A stretch of 64,000 nt of DNA, taken from Embleya hyalina (lineage in GTDB: Bacteria > Actinomycetota > Actinomycetes > Streptomycetales > Streptomycetaceae). The notes under the pieces were generated by a model. The model had not been told where the DNA came from and did not search any database. It worked only from the letters and a program-made list of their open reading frames with translations. Where the stretch lies: positions 124,001 to 188,000 of the forward strand of contig NZ_BIFH01000027.1 in NCBI RefSeq assembly GCF_003967355.1, written 5' to 3'. Below, one piece after another: positions 26,728 through 44,709 of this stretch. A program made the position numbers and the translations under genes. Positions within the stretch are counted from its first letter, which is position 1. Every line of letters begins with the position of its first letter.

Positions 26728-26761
26728 TCGGCAGCGGTGAACCGAGGGGAGTCTGACGACA

Positions 26762-28426: not shown

Positions 28427-28437
28427 CGGAGGGGTCG

Positions 28438-29802: not shown

Positions 29803-29867
29803 CGGCGCATCACATTCCGGTCTCCGGGTCCTGACCGAACTTCTTGTCTGTGCCAAGCTGTCGACCC

Positions 29868-30623
29868 ATGGGCGCTGTACGCAAAACGATTCGCGTCGGG
29901 GCGGAACTCCTCCTGACCCTGGGCCTGGTCGGCCTGCTGCTGTGTGTGCACCAGCTCTACTGGACCAACTTCGAGGCCCGGGCCGAGGCCCGCAACGAGG
30001 TGGAACAGCTGCGCAAGGACTGGGCCCGCCAGGGCACCGCCGAACCACCCGCCGCGCAGCAACCCACCGACGTCCTGGACGGTCCCACCGACGTCAGCGT
30101 GGACGGCGGCAAGGACGGCCAGAAGGTGGTGGGTTCGCACACCATCCGCGGCGAGACGCTGGCCATCCTGTGGATCCCCAGGCTCGGCTCGGACTGGTAC
30201 CAGCCGATCATCGAGGGGTCGAGCCTGGCCTCGCTCTCGAAGGGCGTCGGCCACTACACGTACCCGCCCTACGTCGGCCCCGGCGGCGCCGGCAACTTCG
30301 GCCTCGCCGGCCACCGCAACGGGCACGGCGAGCCGTTCCGCCACCTGAACAACCTGCGGGCGGGCGACAAGGTCGTGGTGGAGACCAAGTCCCAGTGGTT
30401 CACGTACACGATCGTCAAGGGCCCGTTCATCACCAAGCCCTCCAACGGCTCGGTCCTCACCTCCCGCCCCCCGGACCTGGGCGGGCCCGCCGGGCGCAGC
30501 CTGATCACCCTGACCACGTGCGATCCGGAATTCACCTCCAAGAACCGCATGATCTATTGGGGCGAACTCACCACGACGGACCCGAAACAGGGCGACGCGA
30601 AGCCGGCGGCCCTGCGCCGCTGA
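29868..30623 (+). CDS. Class E sortase (third of three)
   Basis: A 251-residue sortase with a membrane helix (LLLTLGLVGLLLCVHQLYW), catalytic histidine in AGHRNGHGEPF, cysteine in TLTTCDP and arginine in NRMIYWGEL. The start is ATG 29868; no ribosome binding site is apparent, so a leaderless message is possible. It resembles the second sortase in its core more than the first, suggesting local duplication. Substrates would be LAXTG-type cell-wall proteins, none of which is in this window. Confidence 0.9.
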   Translation: MGAVRKTIRVGAELLLTLGLVGLLLCVHQLYWTNFEARAEARNEVEQLRKDWARQGTAEPPAAQQPTDVLDGPTDVSVDGGKDGQKVVGSHTIRGETLAILWIPRLGSDWYQPIIEGSSLASLSKGVGHYTYPPYVGPGGAGNFGLAGHRNGHGEPFRHLNNLRAGDKVVVETKSQWFTYTIVKGPFITKPSNGSVLTSRPPDLGGPAGRSLITLTTCDPEFTSKNRMIYWGELTTTDPKQGDAKPAALRR

Positions 30624-30833
30624 GCGCGGGGCGGACACCGGGAAGGCACGGGGCGCCGCGAGGACGCCGTCACGGTTCGGCACCGACAACGCTGCCGCCC
30701 GGAGCCGTAGGATCGAACCCACCCCCCATCGGCGGACCTGTGGATACGGCCCGGCGACTCGCCGTCCCTACCCAAACGACGACAGCGCTTGATAGCTTCA
30801 CTCTCCTTTCGATCTCAGCAACGGAGGGTGAAG

Positions 30834-32198
30834 ATGACCCTTGCCGTACGGGGCCACCTCTTGTTGATCGAGAGCGCGCGGGGTCGTGCGTCCCGTCGAC
30901 AGTTGCGCGGCACCGGCGCCAACCTGGGCGCGATGACCGAGGTACCCCCGGCGTGCTTTGCCCCCGGCGCCTCGGGTGTCGACGTCGTTCAGATAGACGA
31001 CGCGGTCAACCCCCACGCGGTACTGAGCCGCATCAAGGCCGCGGCACGAACCCCGGGGCCCGTGGTCGTGTACGTCTCGGGTCTGCTGATGTTCGATCGC
31101 ACCGGCGCTCCGCATCTCGGGCTGCGGGACTCCACGCCGCGCAGCGTGCGCTATGACGGGCTGCCGTGGGAGTGGCTGGTGAACGCGCTTCGTTCGCGGC
31201 CTCGCAGCGAAACACTGGTCATCGCGGACTTCGCCACCGACGCGCAGAGTTGGGCCCGACTTCGGGACGGCACCCCGGCGCCACTGACGAGCGGCCTGCC
31301 GGTGTGGGGCGTGATCAACCCGCCGGCCAGGTCGGCGGACGGCACCAGCCCCTTCACCCGCGCGTTGTCCGCGGTACTGCCGCGGGGCATACCTCGGGTG
31401 CCCGCCGAGGTGCATCCGTCCGACATCCACCGTGCGGTGGTGGAGCGGGCCGGTCTGGCGGTCGACACCGTGGAACTCGTACCGGATGTACCCGGGTTGC
31501 GGCTGGGGAACGTCCACCCGGGGGCGGCGCCGGCCGCGCTCGCCCCCTCCGACGTCAGGACTGCCGGGCCGCTCGCACAGACGCGCCTGCAACCGTCCGA
31601 CCCGGCGGCGTACACGGGTGATCTCACCCGGATTCGGACGGCGAGCGAAGCGGGTGACCACACAGTCGCCGTCCTCGTGGCCCGAGAGCTGGACAACCGC
31701 CTGGCAACGACTCTGGGGATCGAGCACCCCGACTCATGGGCCGCTCGGGAAGTCCACGCCTGGGCATCGGCGATGGCCGGCCGCTACCTTCAGGCCTGCG
31801 AGCTGTACCGCGACGTCGCCCGACGACGCATGCGGGCCCTGCCCAACGACCACGCGACCGTCCTGGGCCCCACCGACTGCGCCCACGCGGCGTGGCTCCG
31901 CATCACCGACGGGGACGACGCGCGCCGAGTCGGCCCTTCGATCGTCGCCCTTCGAGAACTCGTACCCGGCCCCGGCGGAGCGCTCTCGGCCGCACGGCGC
32001 CACCTGACCCGACTCCGAGACGACGACCCCGAGGCGCAACTGCGCCGCGGACCCGACGCATGGTCCGCCTACCTCGGCCGCCAAACCCGACAATCCACCG
32101 GCCACACCGACACCCCGGCAACAGTCGGGCGATCAACTCGGCCCAAAGTTGTTCAAGATGATCGTTCGCAGATCCGAGAGCCGAGATCATCACACTGA
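30834..32198 (+). CDS. Uncharacterised protein with caspase-like N-terminus and helical C-terminus
   Basis: A 454-residue protein starting at ATG 30834 behind CGGAGGG. Residues 1-190 alternate beta and alpha as in caspase-type folds (VVVYVSGLLMFD; LVIADFATDAQSW), but the positions where caspases keep the His and Cys dyad hold Leu and Thr/Ala, so it would be inactive if homologous. Residues 270-440 are helical with TPR-like spacing. Similar proteins seem conserved in Streptomyces near the gyrase region; this is from memory of the family, not a search. Function is unknown. Confidence 0.6.
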   Translation: MTLAVRGHLLLIESARGRASRRQLRGTGANLGAMTEVPPACFAPGASGVDVVQIDDAVNPHAVLSRIKAAARTPGPVVVYVSGLLMFDRTGAPHLGLRDSTPRSVRYDGLPWEWLVNALRSRPRSETLVIADFATDAQSWARLRDGTPAPLTSGLPVWGVINPPARSADGTSPFTRALSAVLPRGIPRVPAEVHPSDIHRAVVERAGLAVDTVELVPDVPGLRLGNVHPGAAPAALAPSDVRTAGPLAQTRLQPSDPAAYTGDLTRIRTASEAGDHTVAVLVARELDNRLATTLGIEHPDSWAAREVHAWASAMAGRYLQACELYRDVARRRMRALPNDHATVLGPTDCAHAAWLRITDGDDARRVGPSIVALRELVPGPGGALSAARRHLTRLRDDDPEAQLRRGPDAWSAYLGRQTRQSTGHTDTPATVGRSTRPKVVQDDRSQIREPRSSH

Positions 32199-32223
32199 AA
32201 CACGGCGTGAGGAGAGGGTGGAC

Positions 32224-32592
32224 ATGTCGGATCACGACGGGGCAAGGCTGTTCCGCGAAACGTGGATCGCCGGCGTACACAAGCACTTCCCGGGCGAACC
32301 CAAGCCTGGCTACGTCACGCCCTGGGACGACACCCCCGAGTGGGAGCGCAAGGCCGCCGGCGCCGTGTACCAACAGGTTCGACAGTTCCTGGAGCTGAGC
32401 ACGGGACATGCGGCACGGTTGACTCGCGAGCAGAAGGGGCGCTTCGTCGCCACCTGTTGGACGGCGCAGATGTTCAAGCACTTCGAGGACCCCAAGCCGG
32501 GCTACGTCGCCGACTGGGCGGACCTACCGGACTGGCAGCGGGAAACAGACTGCGACATCTTCGAGGCGATCGAAGGCTCTCCGAACCGATGA
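32224..32592 (+). CDS. Uncharacterised protein with two internal repeats
   Basis: A 122-residue protein starting at ATG 32224 behind GAGGAGAGGG. It contains two related halves: HKHFPGEPKPGYVTPWDDTP and FKHFEDPKPGYVADWADLP, each followed by a W-containing helix. The duplicated KHF-PKPGYV-W-D-P-W pattern suggests an ancient tandem duplication, perhaps a small binding fold. It lies just left of the mobile-element scar, and its codon use matches the host, so it is probably native. No function is known. Confidence 0.65.
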   Translation: MSDHDGARLFRETWIAGVHKHFPGEPKPGYVTPWDDTPEWERKAAGAVYQQVRQFLELSTGHAARLTREQKGRFVATCWTAQMFKHFEDPKPGYVADWADLPDWQRETDCDIFEAIEGSPNR

Positions 32593-32602
32593 AGCCCGTC
32601 CA

Positions 32603-32631
32603 AACACGTAGAGAAAGTTTGAACGCACGGC
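32603..32631. repeat. 29-bp direct repeat, copy 1
   Basis: A 29-bp sequence that begins AACACGTAGAG and ends GAACGCACGGC is identical to 36503-36531. It lies 11 bases past the 122-residue gene, at the edge of the old integrase remnant. Confidence 0.85.
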
Positions 32632-32860
32632 ATTACCGGCCCGACGGGTGGGCTCTGTCTCCGGAAGCCCAACAGCACCCCGAGCACCAGCGGAAGAAGC
32701 GCACACCGAGCCCTCCACCGGCCGTCGTCATGCGAACCCCTCGGTTCGCGCGGGTGCGAGGCAGGATCCAGGCGATCACGAACAGGATCACGGCCACGGC
32801 AGATCCCGAACTCGAAGGGCTCGGAGGCGATGCCGTCGACCTCCAACGCGACGATCTCCC
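32632..32860. other. Non-coding remnant between repeat and integrase fragment
   Basis: No intact gene is supported. This is probably decayed element DNA between the 29-bp repeat and the truncated integrase. Confidence 0.45.
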
Positions 32861-33134
32861 ACACTCGGACCGGATCGTGGTGGTTCACGTTCCACGAAGG
32901 GCGGGACACGCAGTCGACGTGGCTTGCGGAAGCCAAGATTCGGGAGGTCGCTCGGCGGGCTCGGCTCGGCCACAGGATGCCGGACATCGCGCGGGTCTAC
33001 GAAAGCACGTGACGCCGGAGATGGAACGGCAAGTACTGGACGCTCTCAACCACGATGAACGCGCCCGGCTCATAACCTGGTTTCCGCACCTGGAGGCGGT
33101 CATTGCCGAACTCCTGGAAGGGCGGGCGGCCTGA
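32861..33134 (+). pseudogene. 3' fragment of a tyrosine integrase, frameshifted
   Basis: One frame encodes WWFTFHEGRDTQSTWL, then VARRARLGHRMPDIARVYE, matching the C-terminus of the intact integrase at 43263-44549 (WFTFHEGRHTQSTWL; ARLGHKMPGIARVYE). At about 33003-33006 two extra bases relative to the intact gene shift the frame, which then continues as HVTPEMERQVLDAL to a GRAA ending. The HxxR histidine is changed to Asp (EGRD for EGRH). The 5' two-thirds are missing. It is the relic of an older element at the same att site. Confidence 0.85.
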
Positions 33135-33166
33135 TTCGGCTCACCCCTAAATGGCCCCTAAGTTGA

Positions 33167-33205
33167 TCAAGGGCCCTTCCCCGGCGTACGGGAAAGGGCC
33201 CTTGA
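33167..33205 (+). terminator. Terminator of the integrase remnant
   Basis: The arms 33167-33178 and 33194-33205 form a stem of the same sequence class as the hairpin after the intact integrase (44579-44621), supporting homology of the two element ends. Confidence 0.75.
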
Positions 33206-33216
33206 CCTGCATGTAC

Positions 33217-33266
33217 GAGAGTGGGCCTAACAGGACTTGAACCTGTGGCCTCTTCCTTATCAGGGA
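33217..33266. other. attL: att copy (left end of the AICE)
   Basis: This 50-bp segment is identical to 44631-44680, which contains the 3' half of tRNA-Ile. Here only the 3' half of the tRNA is present (from 33222); the sequence then diverges, so it is not a functional tRNA. It marks the junction between the old remnant and the present element. Confidence 0.92.
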
Positions 33267-33379
33267 TGCTCGGGCACCCCTCTGACCTGGGCAGACGCAG
33301 AGGACCCTTGCGTCACAAGGACCGTTGCCCCGGGTTGCGACGGGTTCCGGCGCCTTCCCGTCCGTTCCTCACCCCTAAA

Positions 33380-33607
33380 TCACCCCACATACATGGGAAC
33401 AAGATCGGCTTCGCAGGCTCGACTCAACGGGGGCACCTCGGCTCCCACGGGCGTGCTTGGCCCGGTCCGATCGAAGCATCGTCTGCACGCGTACTCGCTC
33501 CACCCGGGTCCGCTCGCGGTGACCACGCGGCGTACGACTTCGACGTCATCCCGCATCTCCGAGCAGCGATGGCAGAAACGCTTGCGTGCAGGTTGAGGCA
33601 GCGTCAT
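33380..33607 (-). CDS. Small cysteine-rich AICE protein
   Basis: A 75-residue protein starting at ATG 33605-33607. Two CxxC-type pairs (FCHRCSEM and YACRRCF) flank ASGPGWSEY, forming a likely single zinc-binding knuckle. Its start overlaps the stop of the upstream gene (ATGA), so it is the last gene of the leftward small-gene operon. Similar small zinc proteins occur in Streptomyces integrative elements; role unknown. Confidence 0.6.
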   Translation of the reverse strand: MTLPQPARKRFCHRCSEMRDDVEVVRRVVTASGPGWSEYACRRCFDRTGPSTPVGAEVPPLSRACEADLVPMYVG

Positions 33608-34128
33608 ACGAAGGCGGTCCCTCGGGATGTGATGGTGAAGGGTCGATCGCATCCGGCGCGGCCGGCTTCCGCTGCGTCTCGGCGCTCTCGCCGTACAACT
33701 CCCTCGTGCCGTCGCACGGCTTCCCGCTGCTCTCGCTCGGCGGCTTCCCGCTCCATCTGTTCGCCGCGGCGGACCCAGTAGGCATCCTCCTTGGCCTGCT
33801 TCCGGGCTCGCTCCTCCCAAAGCCGAGTCACGAACGGACGTACGAGCACATAACCGGGCTCGAACTCGGGCTCAGCCAGCACGGAGGACACAGGGCCAGG
33901 TGCGGCGATCACAGCCGGCTCGCGGGCAGCAACGTCCTCGGACGTCGGCGGGATGAAGTCGCGCCAAGTCACACCACTGGCCTTCCGCGTGGGCCTGGGC
34001 GTGCTCGGTCCGGCTGGGCGGGGTCGGCTCGGGCTGCTTGTGGGGCGAGCACGATGCATGCCGGTCGCCGTCGACGGGGCGGGACGTCCGAGAACCCATC
34101 CGAGTAAGCGGGCAATAAGCTCTGTCAT
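33604..34128 (-). CDS. AICE hypothetical protein with arginine/glutamate-rich C-terminus
   Basis: A 174-residue protein: a short hydrophobic start (MTELIARLLGWVLG), a Pro/Arg/Ser-rich middle, then VLVRPFVTRLWEERARKQAKEDAYWVRRGEQ leading into a charged helix rich in Arg and Glu (to about residue 160), probably a coiled coil. VRPY/VRPF-type proteins of this layout recur in Streptomyces AICEs. Function unknown. It is coupled to the zinc-knuckle gene downstream. Confidence 0.6.
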   Translation of the reverse strand: MTELIARLLGWVLGRPAPSTATGMHRARPTSSPSRPRPAGPSTPRPTRKASGVTWRDFIPPTSEDVAAREPAVIAAPGPVSSVLAEPEFEPGYVLVRPFVTRLWEERARKQAKEDAYWVRRGEQMEREAAEREQREAVRRHEGVVRRERRDAAEAGRAGCDRPFTITSRGTAFV

Positions 34129-34169
34129 TGCTTGGTCAGCTCCTGCTCAGGAATCGCTGATCGGCTATG

Positions 34170-34199
34170 CCTGGGGGCCGTTAGGCGACGGCCCCCAGG
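34170..34199. terminator. Hairpin within the leftward AICE operon
   Basis: The arms 34170-34181 and 34188-34199 pair perfectly over 12 bases with a six-base loop. It lies between the 97-residue and 174-residue genes and may attenuate or terminate transcription. The rest of 34129-34347 holds no supportable gene. Confidence 0.55.
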
Positions 34200-34347
34200 T
34201 GCTTGCATGTCTGCCCCTGGTCCGCGCGGAAGAGCTTCACCGCACCCGAAAGTGCCCTGGCGTTGAAGCTGGTTCACTGGATCAACTCCGCCCAGACGGC
34301 GCGATCCTGCGGGCCGCGAATCTGCATCGCGCGAGCAAGGGTGAGGG

Positions 34348-34641
34348 TCAGCTCGGCGGCTTGGCCCGGTACAACTCGGAACCCTTCAGCATGTACGGCA
34401 TGCCGCCCGGCGGAAGCACAATGACCACCTGGTCGTTGTCGAGCCCGGGTGAATTCTCGGCTCGCTCGACCCGCCCGGCGAGGTAGGCGTCGTGGCCGAA
34501 CCCGGGGCGCGGGGCGACCCAATCGCCAACCTTGATCCGCTCGGGCGCGCGGCGAAGTTCCTCACGGGGCGGCAGGGTGCGTGCCTCGATCACCGGCACA
34601 ACATCGCCGGTTGCGGTCACCACGAAGTCGGGGCGCGTCAC
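34348..34641 (-). CDS. AICE hypothetical protein, 97 residues
   Basis: The start is GTG 34639-34641, with GAGGA upstream. The product begins VTRPDFVVTATGDVVPVIEA and contains IKVGDWVAPRPGFGHDAYLAGRVERAE, a beta-rich KOW/SH3-like stretch, then VVIVLPPGGMPYML. No family name can be assigned. It overlaps the stop of the 44-residue gene upstream (GTGA). Confidence 0.55.
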   Translation of the reverse strand: MTRPDFVVTATGDVVPVIEARTLPPREELRRAPERIKVGDWVAPRPGFGHDAYLAGRVERAENSPGLDNDQVVIVLPPGGMPYMLKGSELYRAKPPS

Positions 34642-34772
34642 GACGGGGTTCCTCGGCGGGGAGCAGGGAACCACGCGTCCGCGCGAGCGAGATACCAACG
34701 ACGTGCCCGCCGCACGATGACGGCCCGTTGGGCAATCTCTCGCGGGGTCAACAGTGATTCGCCACGGCTCAT
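34638..34772 (-). CDS. Small AICE protein, 44 residues
   Basis: The start is ATG 34770-34772, eight bases after GGAGG. The product MSRGESLLTPREIAQRAVIV continues with an Arg/Trp-rich helix and stops at TGA 34638-34640, overlapping the GTG of the next gene. The strong site and coupled stop/start make it a likely real small gene. Unknown function. Confidence 0.5.
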   Translation of the reverse strand: MSRGESLLTPREIAQRAVIVRRARRWYLARADAWFPAPRRGTPS

Positions 34773-34799
34773 GCGCCCGTCCTCCTAATCGGCTGGTGT

Positions 34800-34887
34800 C
34801 CGGCGTGCCGTATCGCGGGGTGTACCGACACGGCACGCCGGAGTCGGGTGCCCTGGTGTCGGGGGCTCGGGCCGGGGACGACACCAG
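34800..34887. promoter_or_regulatory. Two consecutive hairpins in the leftward operon
   Basis: Stem 1 pairs 34800-34811 with 34830-34841 (12 bp); stem 2 pairs 34851-34860 with 34878-34887 (10 bp). They separate the 80-residue gene from the 44-residue gene and could form a terminator or an RNA control element. Confidence 0.5.
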
Positions 34888-34894
34888 GGGCAAT

Positions 34895-35137
34895 TCAGTA
34901 ATCGGTATGCAGGTAGCGGCAGTTCGCCGAGCACGCACACGGCGGCTCGTTCCTGGGCGCTCCGTCGCCCCACGGCCACGGGGCCGACGCTGACCCGAAA
35001 ACCCTTGTGTGCGCGATGAGTTCCCGTGTGCCGTCCTGATCGATGCGACGGATCGAGAGGGTCATTTCGCTACGCGAAGACTGCGGCAACTCGTTGAATC
35101 CGCCACCCGGCGAACGGCCGTGACTGGGCTCAACCAT
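34895..35137 (-). CDS. AICE hypothetical protein, 80 residues
   Basis: ATG 35135-35137 follows GGAGG at six bases. The product has MTLSIRRIDQDGTRELIAHT in the middle and ends CACSANCRYLHTDY. It is the first gene of the leftward set and divergent from the GntR gene, so it may be under its control. No function is known. Confidence 0.5.
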   Translation of the reverse strand: MVEPSHGRSPGGGFNELPQSSRSEMTLSIRRIDQDGTRELIAHTRVFGSASAPWPWGDGAPRNEPPCACSANCRYLHTDY

Positions 35138-35185
35138 GCTGCGCCTCCGCGAACTTGAGTGACTTAGATGACGCTAGCGTGTGGT

Positions 35186-35240
35186 CTAGTTCGCACTGAA
35201 CGGTCTTGGGAAGATTTGAGTTACCCTGCGAGTGAACTAG
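35186..35240. promoter_or_regulatory. Candidate GntR operator pair
   Basis: CTAGTTC at 35186-35192 and its inverse GAACTAG at 35234-35240 face each other in the divergent gap between the leftward small-gene operon and the GntR gene. KorSA-type GntR repressors of AICEs bind near their own promoter; that this is such a site is inference. Confidence 0.4.
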
Positions 35241-35268
35241 TTTGCTCGCCCAAACGAGAGAGCGTGGC

Positions 35269-35997
35269 ATGCCTAGCAACGTCAGATGGACAGCGATCGC
35301 AGACCACTACCGGGCTCAGGTCCTGTCCGGCGAGATAACCCCCGGCACCAAGTTGCCCAGTAACAAGGCACTTGCTGACTCTTGGGGAACAACCACCGCA
35401 ACCGTGAGTCGGGCCCTTGGCAACCTGGTGGTTGAAAAGGTCCTGTACACATCCCCACGGGGAACATACGTAGCGGATGCTCCGTACTCCTCGGCGTCGG
35501 CGAGTGACCGACTCACCCGGGTGCACCGTACGAAGTCGGCGTTGATGGACGGAGAGACCATCGTCGTAACGGCCGCTGGCCTGGTGGTACCGCCGAACTA
35601 CATACGAGAGATGTTCCAGCTCGATCACGGAGATCAAATCGTTCGGCGCGAATCCGTGATCGGTCGCGGTAAGACGCGAACTGCCCTGACCGTGACGTGG
35701 CATCCGGTCGAGTTCCTGGGCTTGGTGCCGGATCTCGTCAGTACGGCTGTTGGCAAGGCAGCTGGGCTGACGGACAAGGTCCTTACCGCCACTGGCCGGA
35801 AGATCACGCACGGCCGTGACGACATGCACGCGCGAACGGCGGATGCGCGCGAGGCTTCACACCTGGGGGTCCCCATTGGTGCGTCCATCCTCGGCCTGGG
35901 ATACAGGTGGTCCGACGAAGCAGGGATCATCGAGTTCGGGGAAGTGTGCCTGCCATCGATGTTGACCATTGGCTACCCGTACGAACTCGCAGACTGA
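35269..35997 (+). CDS. GntR-family regulator (KorSA-like) of the AICE
   Basis: The start is ATG 35269 (MPSNVRWTAIADHYRAQVL). In this 242-residue protein the winged helix occupies residues 5-70: SGEITPGTKLPSNKALADSWG and TVSRALGNLVVE. The C-terminal UTRA-like ligand-binding domain follows (FQLDHGDQIVRRESVIGRG to IIEFGEVCLP). In pSAM2 the related KorSA keeps replication and transfer genes off; the same role is likely here. It stands alone between the leftward operon and the non-coding region. Confidence 0.83.
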   Translation: MPSNVRWTAIADHYRAQVLSGEITPGTKLPSNKALADSWGTTTATVSRALGNLVVEKVLYTSPRGTYVADAPYSSASASDRLTRVHRTKSALMDGETIVVTAAGLVVPPNYIREMFQLDHGDQIVRRESVIGRGKTRTALTVTWHPVEFLGLVPDLVSTAVGKAAGLTDKVLTATGRKITHGRDDMHARTADAREASHLGVPIGASILGLGYRWSDEAGIIEFGEVCLPSMLTIGYPYELAD

Positions 35998-36135
35998 TCC
36001 ATCCCACGGCTGACGCCCCGTCATCTACGTGTATGCAGGGTGACGGGGCTTCGCAAAGGGCGAGTCCCTCGAACTCCGCAGCCTGAAGGCCGACGTCCCA
36101 CCCGACTTGGGCCCCCTACGGAAGGCGACCCACGG

Positions 36136-36178
36136 CCCCGGGCCCCGGTGTGCCGGGGCCCGGGGTGGCACACCGGGG
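36136..36178. repeat. Overlapping alternative hairpins
   Basis: Arm set A is 36136-36148 with 36153-36165 (13 bp, loop TGTG). Arm set B is 36143-36154 with 36167-36178 (12 bp). Both are perfect and share bases, so only one can form at a time. Confidence 0.7.
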
Positions 36179-36400
36179 TTTCGGCGCGCGGGTCACGCAA
36201 CCCGAGTATCAAATGGGGTCCTACGAAGCCGCGGGGCCAAACCTCGGCCAGGCCAACGCAAGTCCTACGCAACGAGCGCGCCCCCGGCGTGGCCGAAGGC
36301 CACGGGTCGCCCCCCAGGCGACTCGCAGCGCAGCTGCGAACCTGTCCTGCGGAAGTCTGCTTCACCACCAGGCCGTGCTCCTGGTCCTCGTCGTGGTTTC

Positions 36401-36498
36401 GCGGTTCTTGGCCGCCGGCGCGGCTCCCGCTGGGCCGGAGGCGGAGGCGGGGGCCGCGCCGGCGGCCAAGAACCGCGCGGCCCCGCGTGCGGGGCCGC
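36401..36498. repeat. Perfect 24-bp inverted repeat followed by a second hairpin
   Basis: 36401-36424 is the exact reverse complement of 36453-36476, enclosing 28 bases; immediately after it 36477-36486 pairs with 36489-36498. The total folded structure would be about 98 bases. Confidence 0.8.
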
Positions 36499-36502
36499 CT
36501 TG

Positions 36503-36531
36503 AACACGTAGAGAAAGTTTGAACGCACGGC
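36503..36531. repeat. 29-bp direct repeat, copy 2
   Basis: Identical to 32603-32631. It lies four bases after the second hairpin of the structured region. Confidence 0.85.
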
Positions 36532-36717
36532 GCTTGCTGCCAGAACCTGAGCTTCAGATTTCTCGATGATTTTTACGCCAACAGACCAGCGGCAAAGACG
36601 GACAAGCCCACCCGCAATACTGGCGTTGGGACTGTGCCGTGCGTCGACCAGCAGTTTTTTTGCCAGTGGGCCGGATGACGACTCGTAGTCTCGTGATCAC
36701 TACGGAAGGGGGCCACC

Positions 36718-37926
36718 GTGGAGACAACGGGGCAACGGATCGCGCGGGCACGGCACCGCAAGGGTTGGGACCAGGCGACGTTAGCGACTGAGGCTGGACG
36801 CTCGGTCAGCTGGGTGTCGAAGGTTGAGAACGGGCGTGTGCCTGTCGACCGGATGAGCGTCCTCGCCAAGCTGGCGAACGTCCTCGGCGTTGAGGTAGTC
36901 GAGTTGACGGGGCAGCCCTACCGCCACGAGACCGAAGAACTCGACTCCGGCCACGGGGGCATCCCGGCGCTTCGTCGGATGCTGCATCACGCGACGCTGC
37001 CCGGTGGGTCGTCGCTGGTCGGCTCCCGCCCCCCTCGGTCACATGACGAGCTGGCAGCCGAAGTTCAGTTCGCCGAACGGCTCCGCCAAGACGCCAAGTT
37101 CACCGCGCTGGGGGAGGTTCTTCCCGGTTTGATCGAGAGCCTGATCGTCTCCATCGGGGCCGCTTCGGGAACCGAGGTCGATCGCCTCGAAGCTCTCATG
37201 CTGCGGACCTGCCACATGGCACGGGTGACAGCCAACCTGCTCGGACACCATGACCTCGGGTGGACGGCCGTACAGCGCGAGTTGACCGCCGCACAGCGGG
37301 TCGGATCGCCCGAACTTGTGGCTGCTGCGACCTGGGACATGTGCGGCGTCTGGCTCCATGGCGCGTCCATCGACGATGCCAAGGCGACTGCAATCACAGC
37401 GCTCGATGCTCTCGACCCCATCGTGGGCGGCGGCGATCCGACCATCCTTTCCCTGTGGGGCGCGATGCACCTCCGGGCCGCGGTGGCGTACTCCCGCTTG
37501 TGGTCGAAGCCGGAAGCTGACGCACACCTCACAGAAGCGGCCCGGGTCGCTGCGCTGGTGCCGTCGGACGGCAACGTCTTCCAGACGCAGTTCAATCAGG
37601 TCAACGTCACCATTCACGCCGTGGAGATCGCCACCGAACTCGGTCGGCCGCGGGACGCCGTGACGTCGGCTGACGAAGTCGCCATCGGCACCATCGCATC
37701 GGCAGAACGTCAGTCGCACTACTGGGTCTGCTCTGCTGCGGGCTTCTTCATGAACCGCCAAGAGGACAAGGCGGTGGAGTCACTCCTGCAAGCCGACCGG
37801 ATCGCGCCCCAGCACGTGCGCAACCGTCCGCAAGTTCGGAACCTGGTCGACGACCTTCGCACGAGTGGGAAGCACACGAAGTCGCGGGAAGTGCGCAGTC
37901 TGGCCACGCGCATGGGTCTCGCCTAG
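36718..37926 (+). CDS. XRE-family regulator of the AICE
   Basis: A 402-residue protein starting at GTG 36718 behind GGAAGGGGG. Residues 5-62 are an XRE helix-turn-helix (RIARARHRKGWDQATLATEAGRSVSWVSKVENGRV). The remainder is all-helical with TPR-like repeats (AATWDMCGVWLHGASIDDAKATAI...), like actinobacterial regulators whose TPR domain may sense peptides or other ligands. It heads the rightward half of the element; such regulators often control AICE transfer, but the target is unknown. Confidence 0.83.
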   Translation: METTGQRIARARHRKGWDQATLATEAGRSVSWVSKVENGRVPVDRMSVLAKLANVLGVEVVELTGQPYRHETEELDSGHGGIPALRRMLHHATLPGGSSLVGSRPPRSHDELAAEVQFAERLRQDAKFTALGEVLPGLIESLIVSIGAASGTEVDRLEALMLRTCHMARVTANLLGHHDLGWTAVQRELTAAQRVGSPELVAAATWDMCGVWLHGASIDDAKATAITALDALDPIVGGGDPTILSLWGAMHLRAAVAYSRLWSKPEADAHLTEAARVAALVPSDGNVFQTQFNQVNVTIHAVEIATELGRPRDAVTSADEVAIGTIASAERQSHYWVCSAAGFFMNRQEDKAVESLLQADRIAPQHVRNRPQVRNLVDDLRTSGKHTKSREVRSLATRMGLA

Positions 37927-38001
37927 TCAGTCAGCCGGCTCGTACACGGCGGCGGTCCGATCGGGGGCCGCCGCTGGTCTTCTTGATGCCTTGGGGGCAC
38001 A

Positions 38002-38181
38002 GTGACACCCGCTGAAATGCGCATCGTGGCGGCCAAGCTCGAAGAACTCGCTGCCATGCATGCCGACTTAGGGCAGAGGATCAACCGGCTTGCTGACCTT
38101 GTCCGGCCTGGCTCTCAAGCTGAGTCACGCGATCCGCAAGAGCCTGCATGCCGTCACCCAGGGACTCAAGCTGCCGCATGA
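38002..38181 (+). CDS. Possible small coiled-coil AICE protein
   Basis: GTG 38002 follows GGGGGCACA. The first 35 residues (VTPAEMRIVAAKLEELAAMH...) form a heptad-like helix; the rest is unstructured and overlaps the 3' end of the convergent GntR gene by about 100 bases. It may be a real short gene with a fortuitous tail or not translated. Confidence 0.35.
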   Translation: MTPAEMRIVAAKLEELAAMHADLGQRINRLADLVRPGSQAESRDPQEPACRHPGTQAAA

Positions 38182-38479
38182 TGGCTGCGAACTCCGGGCT
38201 GGACGGTTGTGAAGCGCTCCGCGCCTCGTCGTCTGCGGCTTCGGCGGCCCGGTCGCGGACGAAGTTTCCACGCCCCTGCACTGAGTAGACGAAGCCCTTG
38301 TCCTTGAGCCGCTTGAGCGCGCTCTGAACCGTGCCGTTCGAGATCCCGTACTCCTGCTGGAGCTGGGTGCCGGACGGCAGCTGGTCACCTGCCTTGAGGT
38401 CGCCCGACAGGATCTTTGCTTCAAGATCGTCGGCAGCCTGAAGGTAGGGCGGGCGCGGGTCGTCCGCTGGCGTGCGCAT
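38081..38479 (-). CDS. GntR-family winged-helix regulator of the AICE
   Basis: The start is ATG 38477-38479 (MRTPADDPRPPYLQ), giving 132 residues. The winged helix spans residues 10-75 (ILSGDLKAGDQLPSGTQLQQEYGISNGTVQSALKRL). The C-terminus is a coiled coil (IMRQLESLGDGMQALADRVTQLESQ), with no ligand domain, as in short plasmid-type GntR proteins. It is divergent from the SCO3933-family gene; the palindrome at 38553-38568 between them is a likely operator. Confidence 0.83.
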   Translation of the reverse strand: MRTPADDPRPPYLQAADDLEAKILSGDLKAGDQLPSGTQLQQEYGISNGTVQSALKRLKDKGFVYSVQGRGNFVRDRAAEAADDEARSASQPSSPEFAAIMRQLESLGDGMQALADRVTQLESQAGQGQQAG

Positions 38480-38549
38480 GTTCTGAGCGTAGCGCCATAT
38501 ACGCCTCATCTCTTCCAAGACTTCTAAATATCCAGAGCACACATACAGG

Positions 38550-38577
38550 TTGACTCTTCTAGAAGAGTTAGTAATGT
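38550..38577 (+). promoter_or_regulatory. Promoter with embedded palindromic operator
   Basis: A -35-like TTGACT (38550-38555) and a -10-like TAATGT (38572-38577) are separated by 16 bases. The perfect 16-bp palindrome ACTCTTCTAGAAGAGT (38553-38568) overlaps the -35 and spacer. A GntR dimer here would block the promoter of the downstream regulator. Confidence 0.65.
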
Positions 38578-38622
38578 TGGGTCAGCCGGGTACGACAGAT
38601 ACCCCAGCAGAGAGGCTTTACC

Positions 38623-38955
38623 ATGCGTTCCATCCCCGTTGACACCTCGGCCGCGATGCTCATGTGCGCCACCGAACCGCAGGTCAAGCTGAAGGACCTG
38701 AAGACCGGTGAGGTCTCCACCGACCGCGACACCGGAGCGACGCTCTACACGGTCGGCATCGTCTTCATCGCGAACGGTGCGGCGGACGTCGTGAAGGTCA
38801 CGGTTCCTGAGCCGGGCCTCCCGAACGGGCTGACCGCCGGTTCGCCGCTGGTCCTCACGGGCCTGGTTGCGCTGCCCTGGGAGAACAACATGGGCGGCCA
38901 GATGCGGCACGGAGTGGCCTTTCGTGCCTCCGCCGTGGCGCTGAAGGCGGCCTGA
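38623..38955 (+). CDS. SCO3933-family regulatory protein
   Basis: A 110-residue protein starting MRSIPVDTSAAMLMC. The family pattern is clear: VKLKDLKTGEVSTDRDTGATLYTV, an IKV-type VVKVTVPEP stretch, then TGLVALPWENN and a closing HGVAFRASAV. Members occur in Streptomyces AICEs and plasmids beside the transfer gene, and are thought to help switch on replication or transfer. It opens a rightward operon with the next genes and is preceded by the promoter at 38550-38577. Confidence 0.85.
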   Translation: MRSIPVDTSAAMLMCATEPQVKLKDLKTGEVSTDRDTGATLYTVGIVFIANGAADVVKVTVPEPGLPNGLTAGSPLVLTGLVALPWENNMGGQMRHGVAFRASAVALKAA

Positions 38956-38959
38956 CTAC

Positions 38960-39211
38960 ATGTCCGGCCGAGCGCGATGCCTGGCTGCGCACCCGGACGA
39001 CTCAAGCGAATGTGACGGCGCTTCCGATCTCGTGCGCGTAGTCGATTCGCATGGTCGTGAGGTGCGCGGCTGTATCCACCATGCCTCGCGCATGCTCGCT
39101 TCCCTGGATGGCGCCCGGGTCTACCCGGGCGCCTCCGGCGGGGCGGCCATCGAGACGTTCAACCGGGCGCAGGACATCCAGCCCTTCGCCTGGCTCACTG
39201 GAAGGGGCTGA
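38960..39211 (+). CDS. Conserved AICE hypothetical protein, 83 residues
   Basis: ATG 38960 is four bases past the upstream stop. The product contains RCLAAHPDDSSECDGASDLV, a GCIHHASRMLASLDG helix, and IETFNRAQDIQPFAWL. Cys/His spacing could bind metal. This type of protein commonly sits between the SCO3933-family gene and the tra gene of AICEs. Function unknown. Confidence 0.65.
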   Translation: MSGRARCLAAHPDDSSECDGASDLVRVVDSHGREVRGCIHHASRMLASLDGARVYPGASGGAAIETFNRAQDIQPFAWLTGRG

Positions 39212-39215
39212 TCCT

Positions 39216-40544
39216 GTGGGATCTCCCGATCTCGTCGGCATGGTTCCCGAAGCCATCGCCGGTCTGGCAGCCGTCTACGGCGGCTCCAAAGTGACCCGCT
39301 ATGCCCGCGCTGACCGCGACACACGGGCCAGCATTCGGCAGGCATACCGCATACGTCGCCGGTGGAGACGCTTCGCACCGATGGCAGGGTTGTTTGCCCT
39401 CCAAGCCCCGGGACGACTCGCCGCGTTACGGACGCCGGACGGGTTCGCTCCCGTTCCGAAGACGCTGATTCCGACCCTCAAGACTCGACCCGACCGATTC
39501 GGCGTCACAGTCACGGCCAACACCCTGCCGAAGGTGGGTCTGACGGCTTGGCGGTCGGCCGAAGAGTCCTTGAGGGACGCGTGGGGCTTCCCGCGCGTCA
39601 AGATCTCGCAGCCGAAGCCGGGGCTCGTTCTCGTTCGCGGATTCCGGAACGAACCGCTCGACACGCACACCGACTCGGTCCTCATGACGTCGGGAGGTGA
39701 CCTCTGCTTTCAGCCCGGGGAGCTGACCTCCGAAGACCCGATCTTCCTCGGCTTCACGGAAGACGGTGAACCGGTCCGGCTGAACCTTCGCCGGTCTGCC
39801 CATGGACTCATCGCCGGGGTGACTCGCTCGGGGAAGTCGATCACCACGAACACGCTCTTGGCCGCAGCCTCACTGATGCGCGACGTGCGGATGGTGGTCA
39901 TCGATCCGAACCTTGCCGCGGCGGCTCCCTGGTGGCGTACCGCCCACACAGTCAGCAGCTCGGTTCAACCAGACGAGCCGATCGAGATCCTTCGCGAGAT
40001 CCGTGCGGAGATGGAACGGCGAGCTGGCACCTTCTGGGCCGGTCGCACGGACCGGATCGAGACCTTCTCGGAAGAGATGCCCCTGATTCTCCTGGTGATC
40101 GACGAGGTGGCGAACTACACCCGTCATCCCGACAAGAAGAAGCGTGAGGCGTTCGAGGCCGAACTGAGCGCCATCGCTTCCCAGGGCGCGAAGTACGGCG
40201 TGCGGCTGTGGTTGCTCGCACAGAAGCCGTCGGCGGATGTCCTGACTACCGCCATCCGCACCAACCTGTCCTCCCGTATCTGCCATCGCGTGGACACGAC
40301 TGAAGACTTCCTCCACCTCTTCCCGGATGGCCGCGACCTCGACGTCACGGCAGCCGATCGGAGCATGCCCCCGGGTGTCTCCATCGCCTCGCTGGGTGAC
40401 ATGAGGACGCCTTCACGAATGCGCTCGGTCTACCTCTCGACTGAGGACTGTTGGCGGATCAACGACGCGATGTGTGCTGCGGGCCTTCAGATACGTGAGC
40501 TGCCGGAGTCCGCACCCTCAATGCCCTTTGACGCTGCCGCGTAA
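39216..40544 (+). CDS. FtsK/SpoIIIE-like DNA translocase (AICE transfer protein)
   Basis: The start is GTG 39216 behind GAAGGGG. The 442-residue protein has a short charged N-terminus (RADRDTRASIRQAYRIRRRWRR), then a RecA-like motor: Walker A GVTRSGKS near residue 200, Walker B LLVIDEV near residue 292, and sensor region LLAQKPSADVLTTAIRTNL. In Streptomyces such Tra proteins pump double-stranded DNA between hyphae and are enough for conjugation. No N-terminal membrane helices are obvious, so membrane attachment may come from the DUF2637 protein. Confidence 0.9.
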   Translation: MGSPDLVGMVPEAIAGLAAVYGGSKVTRYARADRDTRASIRQAYRIRRRWRRFAPMAGLFALQAPGRLAALRTPDGFAPVPKTLIPTLKTRPDRFGVTVTANTLPKVGLTAWRSAEESLRDAWGFPRVKISQPKPGLVLVRGFRNEPLDTHTDSVLMTSGGDLCFQPGELTSEDPIFLGFTEDGEPVRLNLRRSAHGLIAGVTRSGKSITTNTLLAAASLMRDVRMVVIDPNLAAAAPWWRTAHTVSSSVQPDEPIEILREIRAEMERRAGTFWAGRTDRIETFSEEMPLILLVIDEVANYTRHPDKKKREAFEAELSAIASQGAKYGVRLWLLAQKPSADVLTTAIRTNLSSRICHRVDTTEDFLHLFPDGRDLDVTAADRSMPPGVSIASLGDMRTPSRMRSVYLSTEDCWRINDAMCAAGLQIRELPESAPSMPFDAAA

Positions 40545-40565
40545 GCGGTGGGAGGAGTGCCCTCC

Positions 40566-41351
40566 GTGCCCGACCGCAGTCACACTGCCTCGGGAGACGA
40601 CGTCTTCACACGGCGCACCGTTACCGCCGTCATGGTCCTCATCGCCGTGCTGGCCTTCGTCTTCTCCTTCGGCAACGTCTGGGCCCTGGCTCTGCGCCTG
40701 GGCATCCCCGCCTCGATCGCGCCACTCGTTGCGCCGATGGTCGACCTATCCGTCGTCGGCCTGCTCGTCGGCCTTCGCTACCTGTCTCTTCGTGGCGTTC
40801 CTGAGTCCGAACTCACTGATGCCACGCGACTCATGCATCTGTGTGGCTTCCTGACGCTGGCACTGAACGTCGCCGACCCGCTGATGCTCGGTCTGTACGG
40901 CAAGGCTGCGGTGGACGCCGTGGCCCCCGTGCTGCTGCTGGGCTGGGGCAAGGTCGGACCACAGTTCCTGCGCCACTTCCACACAGAGCGGCCGGTCGAC
41001 TTCACACCGGGACACGTGGCCCCGGTCAAACTCCAGGCGAATGACGAACCGGCACCCGCCCCGGTGCTGCCCGATGAGTCGCCTCGGGAAGAGACTCCCA
41101 ATCTGCCTGCCGCTCCGTCGACGGTCACCCAAGATCCGAAACCTGTGGAGTCGCGTCCGACCAATGGTCTCGAACCTCCTCCGGCGCTCGTCCAAGCTGC
41201 GCGGCGACTGGCTCAAGATCATCACGCACGCACCGGTGACCCGATCGACACAGCCACTCTGAAACAGAAACTCGGCCTTCCGATGGCCCTGGTCCTCGCC
41301 GTGCAAGCACGACTCGGCGACGTCGAAACTGTCGGCCGCTCTACCGGCTGA
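40566..41351 (+). CDS. DUF2637 membrane protein (SpdB-like spread protein)
   Basis: The GTG at 40566 is preferred, ten bases after GGAGG; GTG 40548 and 40557 are alternatives. The 261-residue protein has four membrane helices, including AVMVLIAVLAFVFSFGNVWALAL and LMHLCGFLTLALNVADPLML. A Pro/Glu-rich tail ends in a helix-turn-helix-like segment (DPIDTATLKQKLGLPMAL). DUF2637 proteins in Streptomyces elements are linked to intramycelial plasmid spread. It lies 21 bases after tra and before rep. Confidence 0.83.
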   Translation: MPDRSHTASGDDVFTRRTVTAVMVLIAVLAFVFSFGNVWALALRLGIPASIAPLVAPMVDLSVVGLLVGLRYLSLRGVPESELTDATRLMHLCGFLTLALNVADPLMLGLYGKAAVDAVAPVLLLGWGKVGPQFLRHFHTERPVDFTPGHVAPVKLQANDEPAPAPVLPDESPREETPNLPAAPSTVTQDPKPVESRPTNGLEPPPALVQAARRLAQDHHARTGDPIDTATLKQKLGLPMALVLAVQARLGDVETVGRSTG

Positions 41352-41484
41352 CCTTCTCCTTGCGGCCGGTGTGACCACTTCACGCCAAGTCCCTACCCGC
41401 CCCATGCCTCTTTCCGGTCGGGCGCGTCCCACGTCCAGGTCGACGCGCCCGGCCCGTCTTCGCTCAGGAAGGACAGACCCACCG

Positions 41485-42951
41485 ATGACAGCGCCACACC
41501 CCGTTGGCGGCCCCCTCGATGCCACACGACACACGCTGCTTTCACGGGCCGGCTCCGCCTCGTTCCCTGCCTGGCTGGCCCAAGTCAAGCGGACCGGCGG
41601 ATGCGCTCACCCGATCCGACTCACAGGTGAGTCCACAACTGTGGATAACGAGTCGGGGGCAACGCTCCACCGGTTCTCGACCTACGAACAGCCAACCGGA
41701 AGCCTCTTGGTGGCTTGTGGAAACCGCCGAGCAACGCGCTGCCCGTCGTGCTCGGAGACCTACCGCGCGGACACCTTCCAGCTGATCCGCGCCGGGCTGA
41801 CAGGCGGCAAGTCGGTTCCGGAATCGGTTCGCTCCCACAGCAGGGCGTTCGTCACCCTGACGGCACCCTCGTTCGGTGCCGTTCACAACCGGGCCAAGAC
41901 CCCTGCGGGCAAGTTGCTCGCCTGCCGATGCGGCAAGCACCATCCCGATGACGACCCTGCGCTCGGGACGCCTCTCAACCCCGGCACGTACGACTACGTG
42001 AGCGCGGTCCTCTGGAATGCCCACTCTGGCAAACTCTGGGCCCGGTTCACGACTCTGGTGCGTCGTCGCCTCGCCGCACTCGGGGGCCTGACTCAGCGCG
42101 AACTCCCTCATGTCGTGCGGGTGTCCTTCGCCAAAGTCGCCGAGTACCAGCGGCGTGGCTCGATCCACTTCCACGCCGTGATTCGCTTGGACGGCCCCTT
42201 GAGCGGCCAAGACCCGGCGGTCGTGACCGAACCCCCATCGTGGGCGACGGCTGACGTGCTTGCCGAAGCCGTCCGTGACGCTGCATGCGGCACCCGACTG
42301 CGGTCGTCCTTCGAAGCCGTCGGCCCCCGTGAATATCGCTGGGGCGAACAGCTCGACATCCGCCCCATCTCGGAACTCGGCTCCGGCGAACTCACCGATC
42401 GAGCCGTGGCCGGCTATGTAGCCAAGTACGCCACCAAAGGCGCTGAGGTCGCCGGGACCGTGGACCGTTCACTCTGCTGCCGCCGGTGCTCGGGTGTCGG
42501 GTCGCTGCTCCGCGGGGCCCCTCCGTGTCACAGCTGCGACGGTTCGGGCCTCGCGCGGCCGATCGAGACTCTCGACATCGACCCGCATGCACGCCGGATG
42601 ATCCGGGCCTGCTGGGACCTCGGCGGCCTGGTCGACCTCGCCGGACTGAACCTTCGCAAGTGGGCGCACATGCTGGGATTCGCCGGACACTTCTCCACGA
42701 AGTCCCGCCGGTACTCGACCACGCTCGGGGCGCTCCGCTCCGTCCGCACCGACTGGCGCGCCGAACAAGTCCGCGCCCTTCACGGCCTCCCAAACCCCTG
42801 TGACGGCTCCACGCTCGTCGTAGGCCACTGGGCCTTCGCCGGGTCCGGACACACGCCCGGAGAGGCGCTCTTGGCCGCCGGCGTCCGCCGAGACCTCGAC
42901 CTCAATCGCCGGACGGCAAAAGAGGAACTCGCCGCGGAGCGTGCGGCTTGA
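41485..42951 (+). CDS. repSA: RepSA-family rolling-circle replication initiator
   Basis: ATG 41485 follows AGGAAGGA. The 488-residue protein resembles RepSA of pSAM2: zinc-like C-x2-C pairs (CPSCSETYRAD; CRCGKHH), the HUH metal motif SIHFHAVIRLDGP near residue 227, and a second Cys cluster (CCRRCSGVGS...PCHSCDGSG). It should nick the element's origin after excision and covalently hold the 5' end. A DnaA-box-like pair lies inside its 5' end (41629-41648). Its stop overlaps the TTG of the excisionase gene. Confidence 0.9.
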   Translation: MTAPHPVGGPLDATRHTLLSRAGSASFPAWLAQVKRTGGCAHPIRLTGESTTVDNESGATLHRFSTYEQPTGSLLVACGNRRATRCPSCSETYRADTFQLIRAGLTGGKSVPESVRSHSRAFVTLTAPSFGAVHNRAKTPAGKLLACRCGKHHPDDDPALGTPLNPGTYDYVSAVLWNAHSGKLWARFTTLVRRRLAALGGLTQRELPHVVRVSFAKVAEYQRRGSIHFHAVIRLDGPLSGQDPAVVTEPPSWATADVLAEAVRDAACGTRLRSSFEAVGPREYRWGEQLDIRPISELGSGELTDRAVAGYVAKYATKGAEVAGTVDRSLCCRRCSGVGSLLRGAPPCHSCDGSGLARPIETLDIDPHARRMIRACWDLGGLVDLAGLNLRKWAHMLGFAGHFSTKSRRYSTTLGALRSVRTDWRAEQVRALHGLPNPCDGSTLVVGHWAFAGSGHTPGEALLAAGVRRDLDLNRRTAKEELAAERAA

Positions 42952-43244
42952 GCACTGACGAACTGACGGCCCGTGTCGAAGACCTGACGCGAATTCTGTC
43001 CGCCCTGATCACCTCTGCTGCCACTGCACCCGTGGGCGCTCTCCTGACCGCCGACGAACTGAGCGATCGATTCAGGATCCCTGCCCGCACCCTCCGGGAC
43101 ATGGCCAGTGCGGGCCTGATCCCACACCACCGACTCGGCAAGCATTACCGGTTCGCCGCCGACGACATCACAGACATCCTGCGCATCACGCGTCAACAGC
43201 CGGTCTCGCGACACGCGCGCGCCCGGCTCGCCACTGCTGCCTGA
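42948..43244 (+). CDS. xis: Excisionase-like helix-turn-helix protein
   Basis: The start is TTG 42948, overlapping the rep stop (TTGA), with GGAG upstream. In this 98-residue protein a MerR-like helix-turn-helix (LLTADELSDRFRIPARTLRDMASAGLIPHHRLGKHYRF) marks the excisionase family used by AICE integrases to direct excision. Its place between rep and int is the standard one. Confidence 0.83.
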   Translation: MSTDELTARVEDLTRILSALITSAATAPVGALLTADELSDRFRIPARTLRDMASAGLIPHHRLGKHYRFAADDITDILRITRQQPVSRHARARLATAA

Positions 43245-43262
43245 CTCACGGGGGAAACGAAC

Positions 43263-44549
43263 ATGGCACACGCAGAAAGCACCCGTGGAGTCTGGCGCGG
43301 CCGATACATGCGCCCGGACGGCACGCGCGGGTCCACCCCTTCCTTCTCCACACGGAAGCTCGCCCTGTCCGCTGCGCAGGACGAAGAATCGCGCATCCGA
43401 CACAACACGTGGACGGATCCTCGCCTGGCCGAAAGACCCTTCGGAGAGTTCGCTGAGGACTGGTTCAAGGCGGTGTGCCCGCGCCTGGCCCCCTCCACTG
43501 TGGCCAAGTACCGCAGCCACCTCGATCGGCAGATCCTGCCGACCTGGGCGGCGTGGCCCATGATCGCCATCTTCAACAGCCATCTTGAGATCGAGAAGTG
43601 GGTCTCAGAGTTGTGCGAAGATCACGCCGAATCCTCGGTGGCGTCGTACTTCGCGTTGTTCTCCACAGTCATGACCGCCGCTGTACGGGCCCGAGTAATC
43701 CCCGCCAGTCCATGCTCCGGCATCCGTGTCACGTCCGGCGGCTACGAGACAGAGAAGTACGTCGCGACGCCTGTACAGGGCCTGCGGGCGGCCATGCGCC
43801 TGCATGAGACAACCGGCCTGAGTGGCTTCGTGTTGTGCCTCCTCGACCTGTACACCGGCGCCCGTTGGGGTGAACTGGTCGGGCAGACGGCGGAGGAGTA
43901 CAACCCAGATACAGGTGCGATCGCTCTCCACCGCCCCCTCAAGGAGGTGGGCGGCAAGCTGGTCAAGGACGGTCAAAGCGTTCAGGAGACAACCGACCTC
44001 CTGTCGAGTTCCCGGCGGCCTCGGCGCAAGCGCACCGGACGGGGCAAGACCGCTTCCTCGGAACGATGGGTGACGCTGCCACCGAGCATGGCCGTGCTCT
44101 ATGAACTGCTGCTCGACAGCCACGACCATGAGTTCAGCTTCACCGCACCGGAGGGCGGCGGGCTGTACCGGGGCCACTTTCGCGAACGCTTCTGGCGCCC
44201 GGCCTGGGACGGCGTCGATGCGGACGATCCCGATTCACCGGCTCACCAACCGCCGATCCTTCGGTGGTTCACGTTCCACGAAGGGCGACACACGCAGTCG
44301 ACGTGGCTCGCAGACGATGATGTGCCGGAAGTCGCCCGGCGGGCTCGCCTCGGCCACAAGATGCCGGGTATCGCACGGGTCTATGAACACGTGACGCCGG
44401 AAATGGAGCAGCGGGTATCCGACGTCCTTGAGGCTCGCTGGGATGCCTCACTGCTGGCGCTCGACGCGAACGAACGCGAAACGCTCGTCGGCCTGCTCCC
44501 GCACCTGGGGCCGGTAATCGCCGACCTGGAGGAGAACCGGGCGGCCTGA
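43263..44549 (+). CDS. int: Site-specific tyrosine integrase of the AICE
   Basis: A 428-residue recombinase. The SAM-like N-terminal domain covers residues 60-150. Catalytic residues: arginine in TGARWGELVG (near 200), HxxR in FTFHEGRHTQSTW (near 338), histidine-region LGHKMPG, and nucleophile tyrosine in IARVYEHV (near 372). It joins the 50-bp att sites within tRNA-Ile. It lies next to the tRNA, followed by a strong terminator. A broken relative lies at 32861-33134. Confidence 0.94.
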   Translation: MAHAESTRGVWRGRYMRPDGTRGSTPSFSTRKLALSAAQDEESRIRHNTWTDPRLAERPFGEFAEDWFKAVCPRLAPSTVAKYRSHLDRQILPTWAAWPMIAIFNSHLEIEKWVSELCEDHAESSVASYFALFSTVMTAAVRARVIPASPCSGIRVTSGGYETEKYVATPVQGLRAAMRLHETTGLSGFVLCLLDLYTGARWGELVGQTAEEYNPDTGAIALHRPLKEVGGKLVKDGQSVQETTDLLSSSRRPRRKRTGRGKTASSERWVTLPPSMAVLYELLLDSHDHEFSFTAPEGGGLYRGHFRERFWRPAWDGVDADDPDSPAHQPPILRWFTFHEGRHTQSTWLADDDVPEVARRARLGHKMPGIARVYEHVTPEMEQRVSDVLEARWDASLLALDANERETLVGLLPHLGPVIADLEENRAA

Positions 44550-44578
44550 TCCGGATTCCCCACTATTTCCCCACACAT

Positions 44579-44621
44579 GATCAAGGGCCCTTCCCCGATG
44601 AATGGGGAAGGGCCCTTGATC
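44579..44621 (+). terminator. Terminator after the integrase gene
   Basis: The 18-base arms 44579-44596 and 44604-44621 pair perfectly with a seven-base loop, 30 bases past the integrase stop. Confidence 0.88.
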
Positions 44622-44630
44622 TGCACTTAT

Positions 44631-44680
44631 GAGAGTGGGCCTAACAGGACTTGAACCTGTGGCCTCTTCCTTATCAGGGA
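44631..44680. other. attR: att copy (right end of the AICE, in tRNA-Ile)
   Basis: Identical over 50 bp to 33217-33266. It covers the 3' half of tRNA-Ile from the anticodon arm to just beyond the acceptor, so integration leaves the tRNA intact on this side. Confidence 0.92.
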
Positions 44681-44709
44681 AGCGCTCTAACCGTCTGAGC
44701 TATAGGCCC
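44636..44709 (-). tRNA. tRNA-Ile (GAT)
   Basis: A 74-nt tRNA with perfect acceptor GGGCCTA/TAGGCCC, D-arm AGCTCAGACGGTTAGAGC and anticodon loop CTGATAA giving GAT. No CCA is encoded. It is the integration target of the AICE. Confidence 0.96.

What the first reader, a model, noticed from the sequence alone, without database searches (positions are those of the whole stretch)
32603..33266. Remnant of an older AICE stacked against the present one at tRNA-Ile
Seen: left of the left att copy lies the 3' end of a second integrase, broken by a two-base insertion near 33003 and lacking its 5' part, with a terminator of the same type as that of the intact integrase, followed by the 50-bp att. Inference: a first element integrated in tRNA-Ile, a second integrated at the same site, and the first then decayed and lost its left att. 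Tandem accretion at a tRNA is known for integrative elements, but the scar here is unusually readable.
Basis: partly seen in the sequence, partly recalled or inferred. Interest (0 to 1): 0.6.

Follow-up and report, generated by a model that had tools for sequence, protein, structure and literature searches.

The report
Decayed AICE stacked beside intact AICE
Next to an intact conjugative element inserted in a tRNA gene of an Embleya bacterium lie the broken remains of a second, different element that used the same tRNA; such stacking and decay is already known in related bacteria.

Summary
At 32881-33134 lies the last fifth of a tyrosine integrase, with a two-base insertion at 33004-33005. It is followed by a terminator and a 50-bp exact copy (33217-33266) of the tRNA-Ile end at 44631-44680. 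It is only about 74% (DNA) like the intact integrase at 43263-44549, so it is not a recent copy.

Comparison with three same-genus genomes (genus Embleya) supports the main inference: a second, different AICE once sat in tRNA-Ile and decayed. The scar is larger than reported (about 32150-33216). It also holds the end of a regulator gene, its intact partner gene (32224-32592) and a 29-bp piece of a non-coding block seen in other AICEs. The left att, the native terminator and the end of a caspase-like gene are gone, lost at a junction near 32140-32153. In relative G002 that gene still abuts the native terminator.

Corrections: the terminator is of the tRNA's own Embleya type, not a mark of AICEs. 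Which element arrived first is not shown. AICE accretion with a remnant is published (PMC9513070). Verdict: ordinary in kind, well documented here. Side leads: the conserved structured block and repeated inversions nearby.

The parts
30834..32140 (+). caspase-like (EACC1-associated type) chromosomal gene, left neighbour of the scar; its last codons are lost and the frame runs on into the scar to 32198
   Evidence: NCBIfam weak match; G002 homologue ends 34 bp from the native tRNA-Ile terminator; relatives
32150..32212 (+). 3' end of an XRE-type regulator gene, front part deleted; approximate left edge of the scar
   Evidence: match to G001 L065; homologues upstream of the partner gene in relatives
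32224..32592 (+). partner gene of the regulator, 122 aa, intact frame, function unknown
   Evidence: 92% identical in G001, Ka/Ks about 0.06; no Pfam or NCBIfam match
32603..32644 (+). 3' piece of a conserved non-coding AICE block; first 29 bp identical to 36503-36531
32645..32880 (.). unassigned stretch holding the second deletion junction
   Evidence: only weak collinear matches to G002 C4
32881..33134 (+). 3' end of integrase A, pseudogene (AG insertion at 33004-33005, 5' part missing)
33165..33205 (.). terminator of the type native to Embleya tRNA-Ile
33217..33266 (.). shared att: right att of element A and left att of element B, 50 bp exact
33217..44680 (+). intact AICE B
36340..36531 (+). 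intact copy of the conserved hairpin block in B
43263..44549 (+). intact tyrosine integrase of B
44635..44709 (-). tRNA-Ile (GAT), integration target; right att is 44631-44680

Best explanation
The scar is what remains of a second AICE (A), of the same broad kind as the intact one (B) but of a different lineage, that was integrated in the 3' end of tRNA-Ile by its own tyrosine integrase. A and B stood in tandem, sharing the att at 33217-33266. At least two deletions removed most of A: one joined the end of the caspase-like chromosomal gene to the end of A's regulator gene and took the native terminator and A's left att; another took A's transfer and replication genes and the front of its integrase. 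A frameshift also hit the integrase. Shown: two non-identical integrase ends, each followed by a terminator and att; the left junction by comparison with G002. Inferred: that A was once complete, the deletion mechanism, and that A is the older. B keeps both att sites and its recombination genes, so it should be able to excise alone and leave A behind; A, without left att or integrase, should be immobile.
For: Two integrase ends 74% identical in DNA beside an exact 50-bp att. G002 shows the element-free order caspase-like gene, native terminator, tRNA-Ile. G003 carries a third, compact AICE with another integrase in the same tRNA, and G001 a decayed integrase end of type B there, so the site is used repeatedly. 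The scar keeps an AICE order: regulator pair, block, integrase end, att. The block motif occurs 17 times in 100 genomes against 0 for the reversed control, mostly upstream of AICE modules. Published precedent.
Against: No intact A-type element was found. The regulator pair also occurs outside AICEs in relatives. The stretch 32645-32880 is unexplained. Order of integration is not shown. Synonymous distances of the caspase-like and partner genes exceed those of neighbouring core genes, hinting at local recombination.
Confidence: 0.85

Rival explanations
1. Recent partial duplication of the right end of the intact AICE (integrase end, terminator, att), by unequal exchange or an abortive integration.
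For: Same order integrase end, terminator, att in both copies.
Against: Only 74% DNA identity with several gaps while the att is exact; Ks about 0.57. The scar also holds a regulator end and partner gene that B lacks.
Confidence: 0.02
2. Stacking is right but the order is reversed: B was there first, and A integrated into the left att of B, then decayed.
For: The map is the same as for the other order. A type B integrase end in G001, at core-like divergence (Ks 0.22 against 0.17-0.40 for core genes), fits a long residence of B-type elements.
Against: A is decayed and B intact, which weakly favours A first; integration into the full tRNA site is the usual event.
Confidence: 0.25
3. Only the integrase end, terminator and att come from an old AICE; the regulator end and partner gene at 32150-32592 are an unrelated chromosomal module.
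For: The regulator and partner pair is common in Streptomycetaceae and shows no AICE genes within the fetched 11-19 kb in G003, G024 and G023.
Against: The 29-bp AICE block follows the pair 11 bp downstream, and in G001 the pair follows an AICE left-end gene. G002, with the element-free site, has no DNA match to the pair.
Confidence: 0.2

Closest known systems
Accretion of AICEs and defective AICEs at a tRNA-Arg in a Streptomyces population (PMC9513070)
   Same: Several elements with different integrases at one tRNA, plus a conserved remnant without traB next to the left repeat.
   Different: There the remnant lies between direct repeats; here the outer att is lost. Other tRNA, other genus.
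Tandem AICEs Fean5518/Fean5534 (Frankia, tRNA-Lys) and Sav3708/Sav3728 (S. avermitilis, tRNA-Arg) (PMC3218068)
   Same: Two AICEs in tandem at one tRNA, with related or unrelated integrases.
   Different: Both members are complete there, and the Frankia pair was shown to excise singly and together.
CIMEs and deletion derivatives of ICESt1-type elements (Pavlovic et al. 2004, as cited in PMC3218068)
   Same: Deletion derivatives beside an intact element at one site.
   Different: From general knowledge, a CIME keeps both att sites and can be moved in cis; this remnant keeps one.

Membership tests
AICE (pSAM2-like), element B | RepSA-type replication initiator | tested here: met
   PF20199 E 2e-151
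AICE (pSAM2-like), element B | FtsK/SpoIIIE-type transfer protein | tested here: met
   PF01580 E 2e-15
AICE (pSAM2-like), element B | integrase and excisionase next to an att in a tRNA 3' end, direct repeats at both ends | tested here: met
AICE (pSAM2-like), element B | excision and transfer in vivo | not testable with these tools
   needs PCR for attP and mating
Tandem accretion (two elements of one specificity in one site) | more than two att copies, or an element end beyond the outer att | tested here: met
   second integrase end and terminator outside the left att; a third att copy is not present
Tandem accretion (two elements of one specificity in one site) | elements are distinct, not copies | tested here: met
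   74% DNA identity, Ks about 0.57
CIME | flanked by att on both sides | tested here: not met
   no left att

The most novel reading that the evidence does not exclude
The 29-bp piece in the scar is part of a widely conserved, structured non-coding element of RepSA-type AICEs (long GC-rich hairpin, second hairpin, then CTTGA-N4-GTAGAGAAA-N3-TGAAC) that matched no Rfam family and may be a single-strand replication origin or a structured RNA. That element family might be undescribed; the stacking is not new.
Probability: 0.4. Interest if true: 0.5.

Novelty: new member of a known kind. Interest (0 to 1): 0.28.

Why it matters
It documents turnover of AICEs at tRNA-Ile in Embleya: at least three integrase types have used the site in four species, with empty, intact, decayed and stacked states all visible. 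It also shows elements carrying a terminator of the host tRNA's own type. The stacking itself is an expected outcome.

Tried and rejected
Recent duplication of B: rejected by divergence. A left att for the remnant further left: none in the window, and none in the fetched G001 stretch besides the tRNA itself. An intact A-type element: not found in 199 relatives by DNA, in 395 family genomes or 130 relatives with the intact integrase as query, or in the named genome collection. The first of these integrase searches used too strict a threshold (1e-60) and was repeated at 1e-5. Terminator as an AICE hallmark: rejected. Terminator similarity as a clock: A is 54/63 to B and 50-51/63 to the native copies, not decisive. 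G001 as a simple earlier state of this scar: rejected, since its integrase end is of type B. Identity of 32645-32880: unresolved. RNAalifold on a sequence alignment of the block gave a weak consensus (-5.3 kcal/mol; 7 of 13 pairs with two-sided changes); the hairpin arms do not align well by sequence. A first translation of the G001 regulator used the wrong frame and was redone.

Full report
What is there. The window carries an intact AICE, called B here, between two exact 50-bp copies of the tRNA-Ile end, 33217-33266 and 44631-44680. tRNA-Ile itself lies at 44635-44709 on the minus strand. B has uninterrupted frames for GntR and XRE regulators, an SCO3933-family protein, an FtsK-type TraB, a DUF2637 protein, RepSA, an excisionase-like protein and a 428-aa tyrosine integrase. 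Left of the left att lies the end of a second integrase, called A (32881-33134), equivalent to residues 335-428 of B's. It is broken by AG at 33004-33005 and followed by a terminator at 33165-33205.

It is not a copy of B. The two integrase ends are 73.8% identical over the aligned DNA and 62-70% identical in protein, depending on how gaps are counted, while the att is exact. The synonymous distance is about 0.57 on 83 codons, a small sample.

The genus. The closest genomes are labelled same genus by the tool. A contig of one of them (G001, 265,948 bases) has the length of NZ_KB889730.1 of Embleya scabrispora DSM 41855 and shows the same sequence beside tRNA-Ile. So the window is probably from an Embleya species, an inference from kinship. 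By gyrA synonymous distance G002 is nearest (0.04), then G001 (0.17), then G003 (0.24).

Four states of one site. In G002 tRNA-Ile has a terminator, and 34 bp further left the match to window 30742-32124, a caspase-like gene, ends; there is no integrase trace. In G003 a compact 5-kb AICE with RepSA, Xis and a different integrase sits between att copies; its attL side has the Embleya-type terminator and its integrase side has another one. In G001 an integrase end of type B (Ks 0.22 to B) lies directly at tRNA-Ile, next to a piece of the AICE block and a truncated caspase-like gene. In the window, the remains of A and intact B stand in tandem.

Extent of the scar. Matches to G001 show that 32154-32579 is the end of an XRE regulator gene plus its partner gene of 122 aa. 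The partner gene is still an intact frame, 92% identical to the G001 copy with Ka/Ks about 0.06. Eleven bases on, 32603-32631 equals 36503-36531 of B base for base. That piece belongs to a motif, CTTGA-N4-GTAGAGAAA-N3-TGAAC, found 17 times in 100 genomes against 0 for the reversed control. Of the 14 loci fetched around it, 12 have at least two of the AICE modules SCO3933, TraB and RepSA downstream on the same strand. So the scar runs from about 32150 to 33216 and keeps an AICE order. The stretch 32645-32880 is unexplained.

How it arose. Compared with G002, the window lacks the end of the caspase-like gene, the native terminator and A's left att; the junction lies near 32140-32153. A second junction, within 32645-32880, removed the replication and transfer genes and the front of the integrase. 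These are readings of the sequence; the deletion mechanism is not known. The regulator and partner pair also occurs outside AICEs, so its place in A rests on the neighbouring block and on G001, where the pair follows an AICE left-end gene.

What is not shown. Which element came first cannot be read from the map: insertion of B into the tRNA beside A, or of A into the left att of B, gives the same result. Decay of A favours A first, weakly. Divergence values hint at local recombination: the caspase-like gene has Ks 0.29 to G002 where other genes have 0.04-0.09, and the partner gene has Ks 0.71 to G001 where core genes have 0.17-0.40.

The terminator. The GGGCCCTT stem-loop is present beside tRNA-Ile in G002, which has no element, and on the chromosomal side in G003, but was not seen in the other family members inspected. 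Elements A, B and the one in G001 therefore carry a terminator of the host tRNA's type. How they got it is not known.

Known precedent. Two AICEs in tandem at one tRNA are described in Frankia and S. avermitilis (PMC3218068). Accretion at a tRNA-Arg in a Streptomyces population, with different integrases and a conserved remnant devoid of traB, is described in PMC9513070. The present case is another member of that kind. It is not a CIME, since it has lost its outer att.

Verdict. Interest is modest. The conserved block deserves its own study.

Noticed in passing
window 36340-36531; L138, L149, L151-L162: Conserved non-coding block upstream of RepSA-type AICE modules: a long GC-rich hairpin, a second hairpin with two-sided changes, then CTTGA-N4-GTAGAGAAA-N3-TGAAC. 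17 hits against 0 for the reversed control in 100 genomes; no Rfam family reached its threshold. Could be a single-strand origin or a structured RNA.
   Followed up: partly
window 20442-30742: A 10-kb segment (tRNA-Ala, rhomboid, sortases, glutamine amidotransferase) is inverted relative to G002 and to other Streptomycetaceae. G001 shares the window's orientation although G002 is the closer relative; G003 has an inversion with other breakpoints that includes the caspase-like gene. Repeated inversions beside the AICE site; no long inverted repeats at the breakpoints.
   Followed up: partly
L065 780-6622 (G001): The left part of an AICE, with a transposase-like tail at its left and a regulator gene with an in-frame stop, lies between the sortase genes and the truncated caspase-like gene: probably moved by rearrangement.
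   Followed up: partly
G003 C446, L067: A compact 5-kb AICE in tRNA-Ile with GntR, RepSA, Xis and an integrase unlike A and B, and no TraB-like match in the search with B's proteins.
   Followed up: partly
window 30834-32198: Caspase-like gene (weak EACC1-associated caspase match) found in all four Embleya genomes next to changing breakpoints; Ks to G002 several times that of neighbouring genes.
   Followed up: partly
L106-L110, L115-L117: Distant relatives of the integrase (about 32-67% identity) in Nocardiopsis, Streptomonospora, Actinomadura and Actinoallomurus lie next to tRNA-Val rather than tRNA-Ile.
   Followed up: no
window 25392-25487: ARAGORN reports a tRNA with an odd four-base anticodon (catc), probably a false call.
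   Followed up: no
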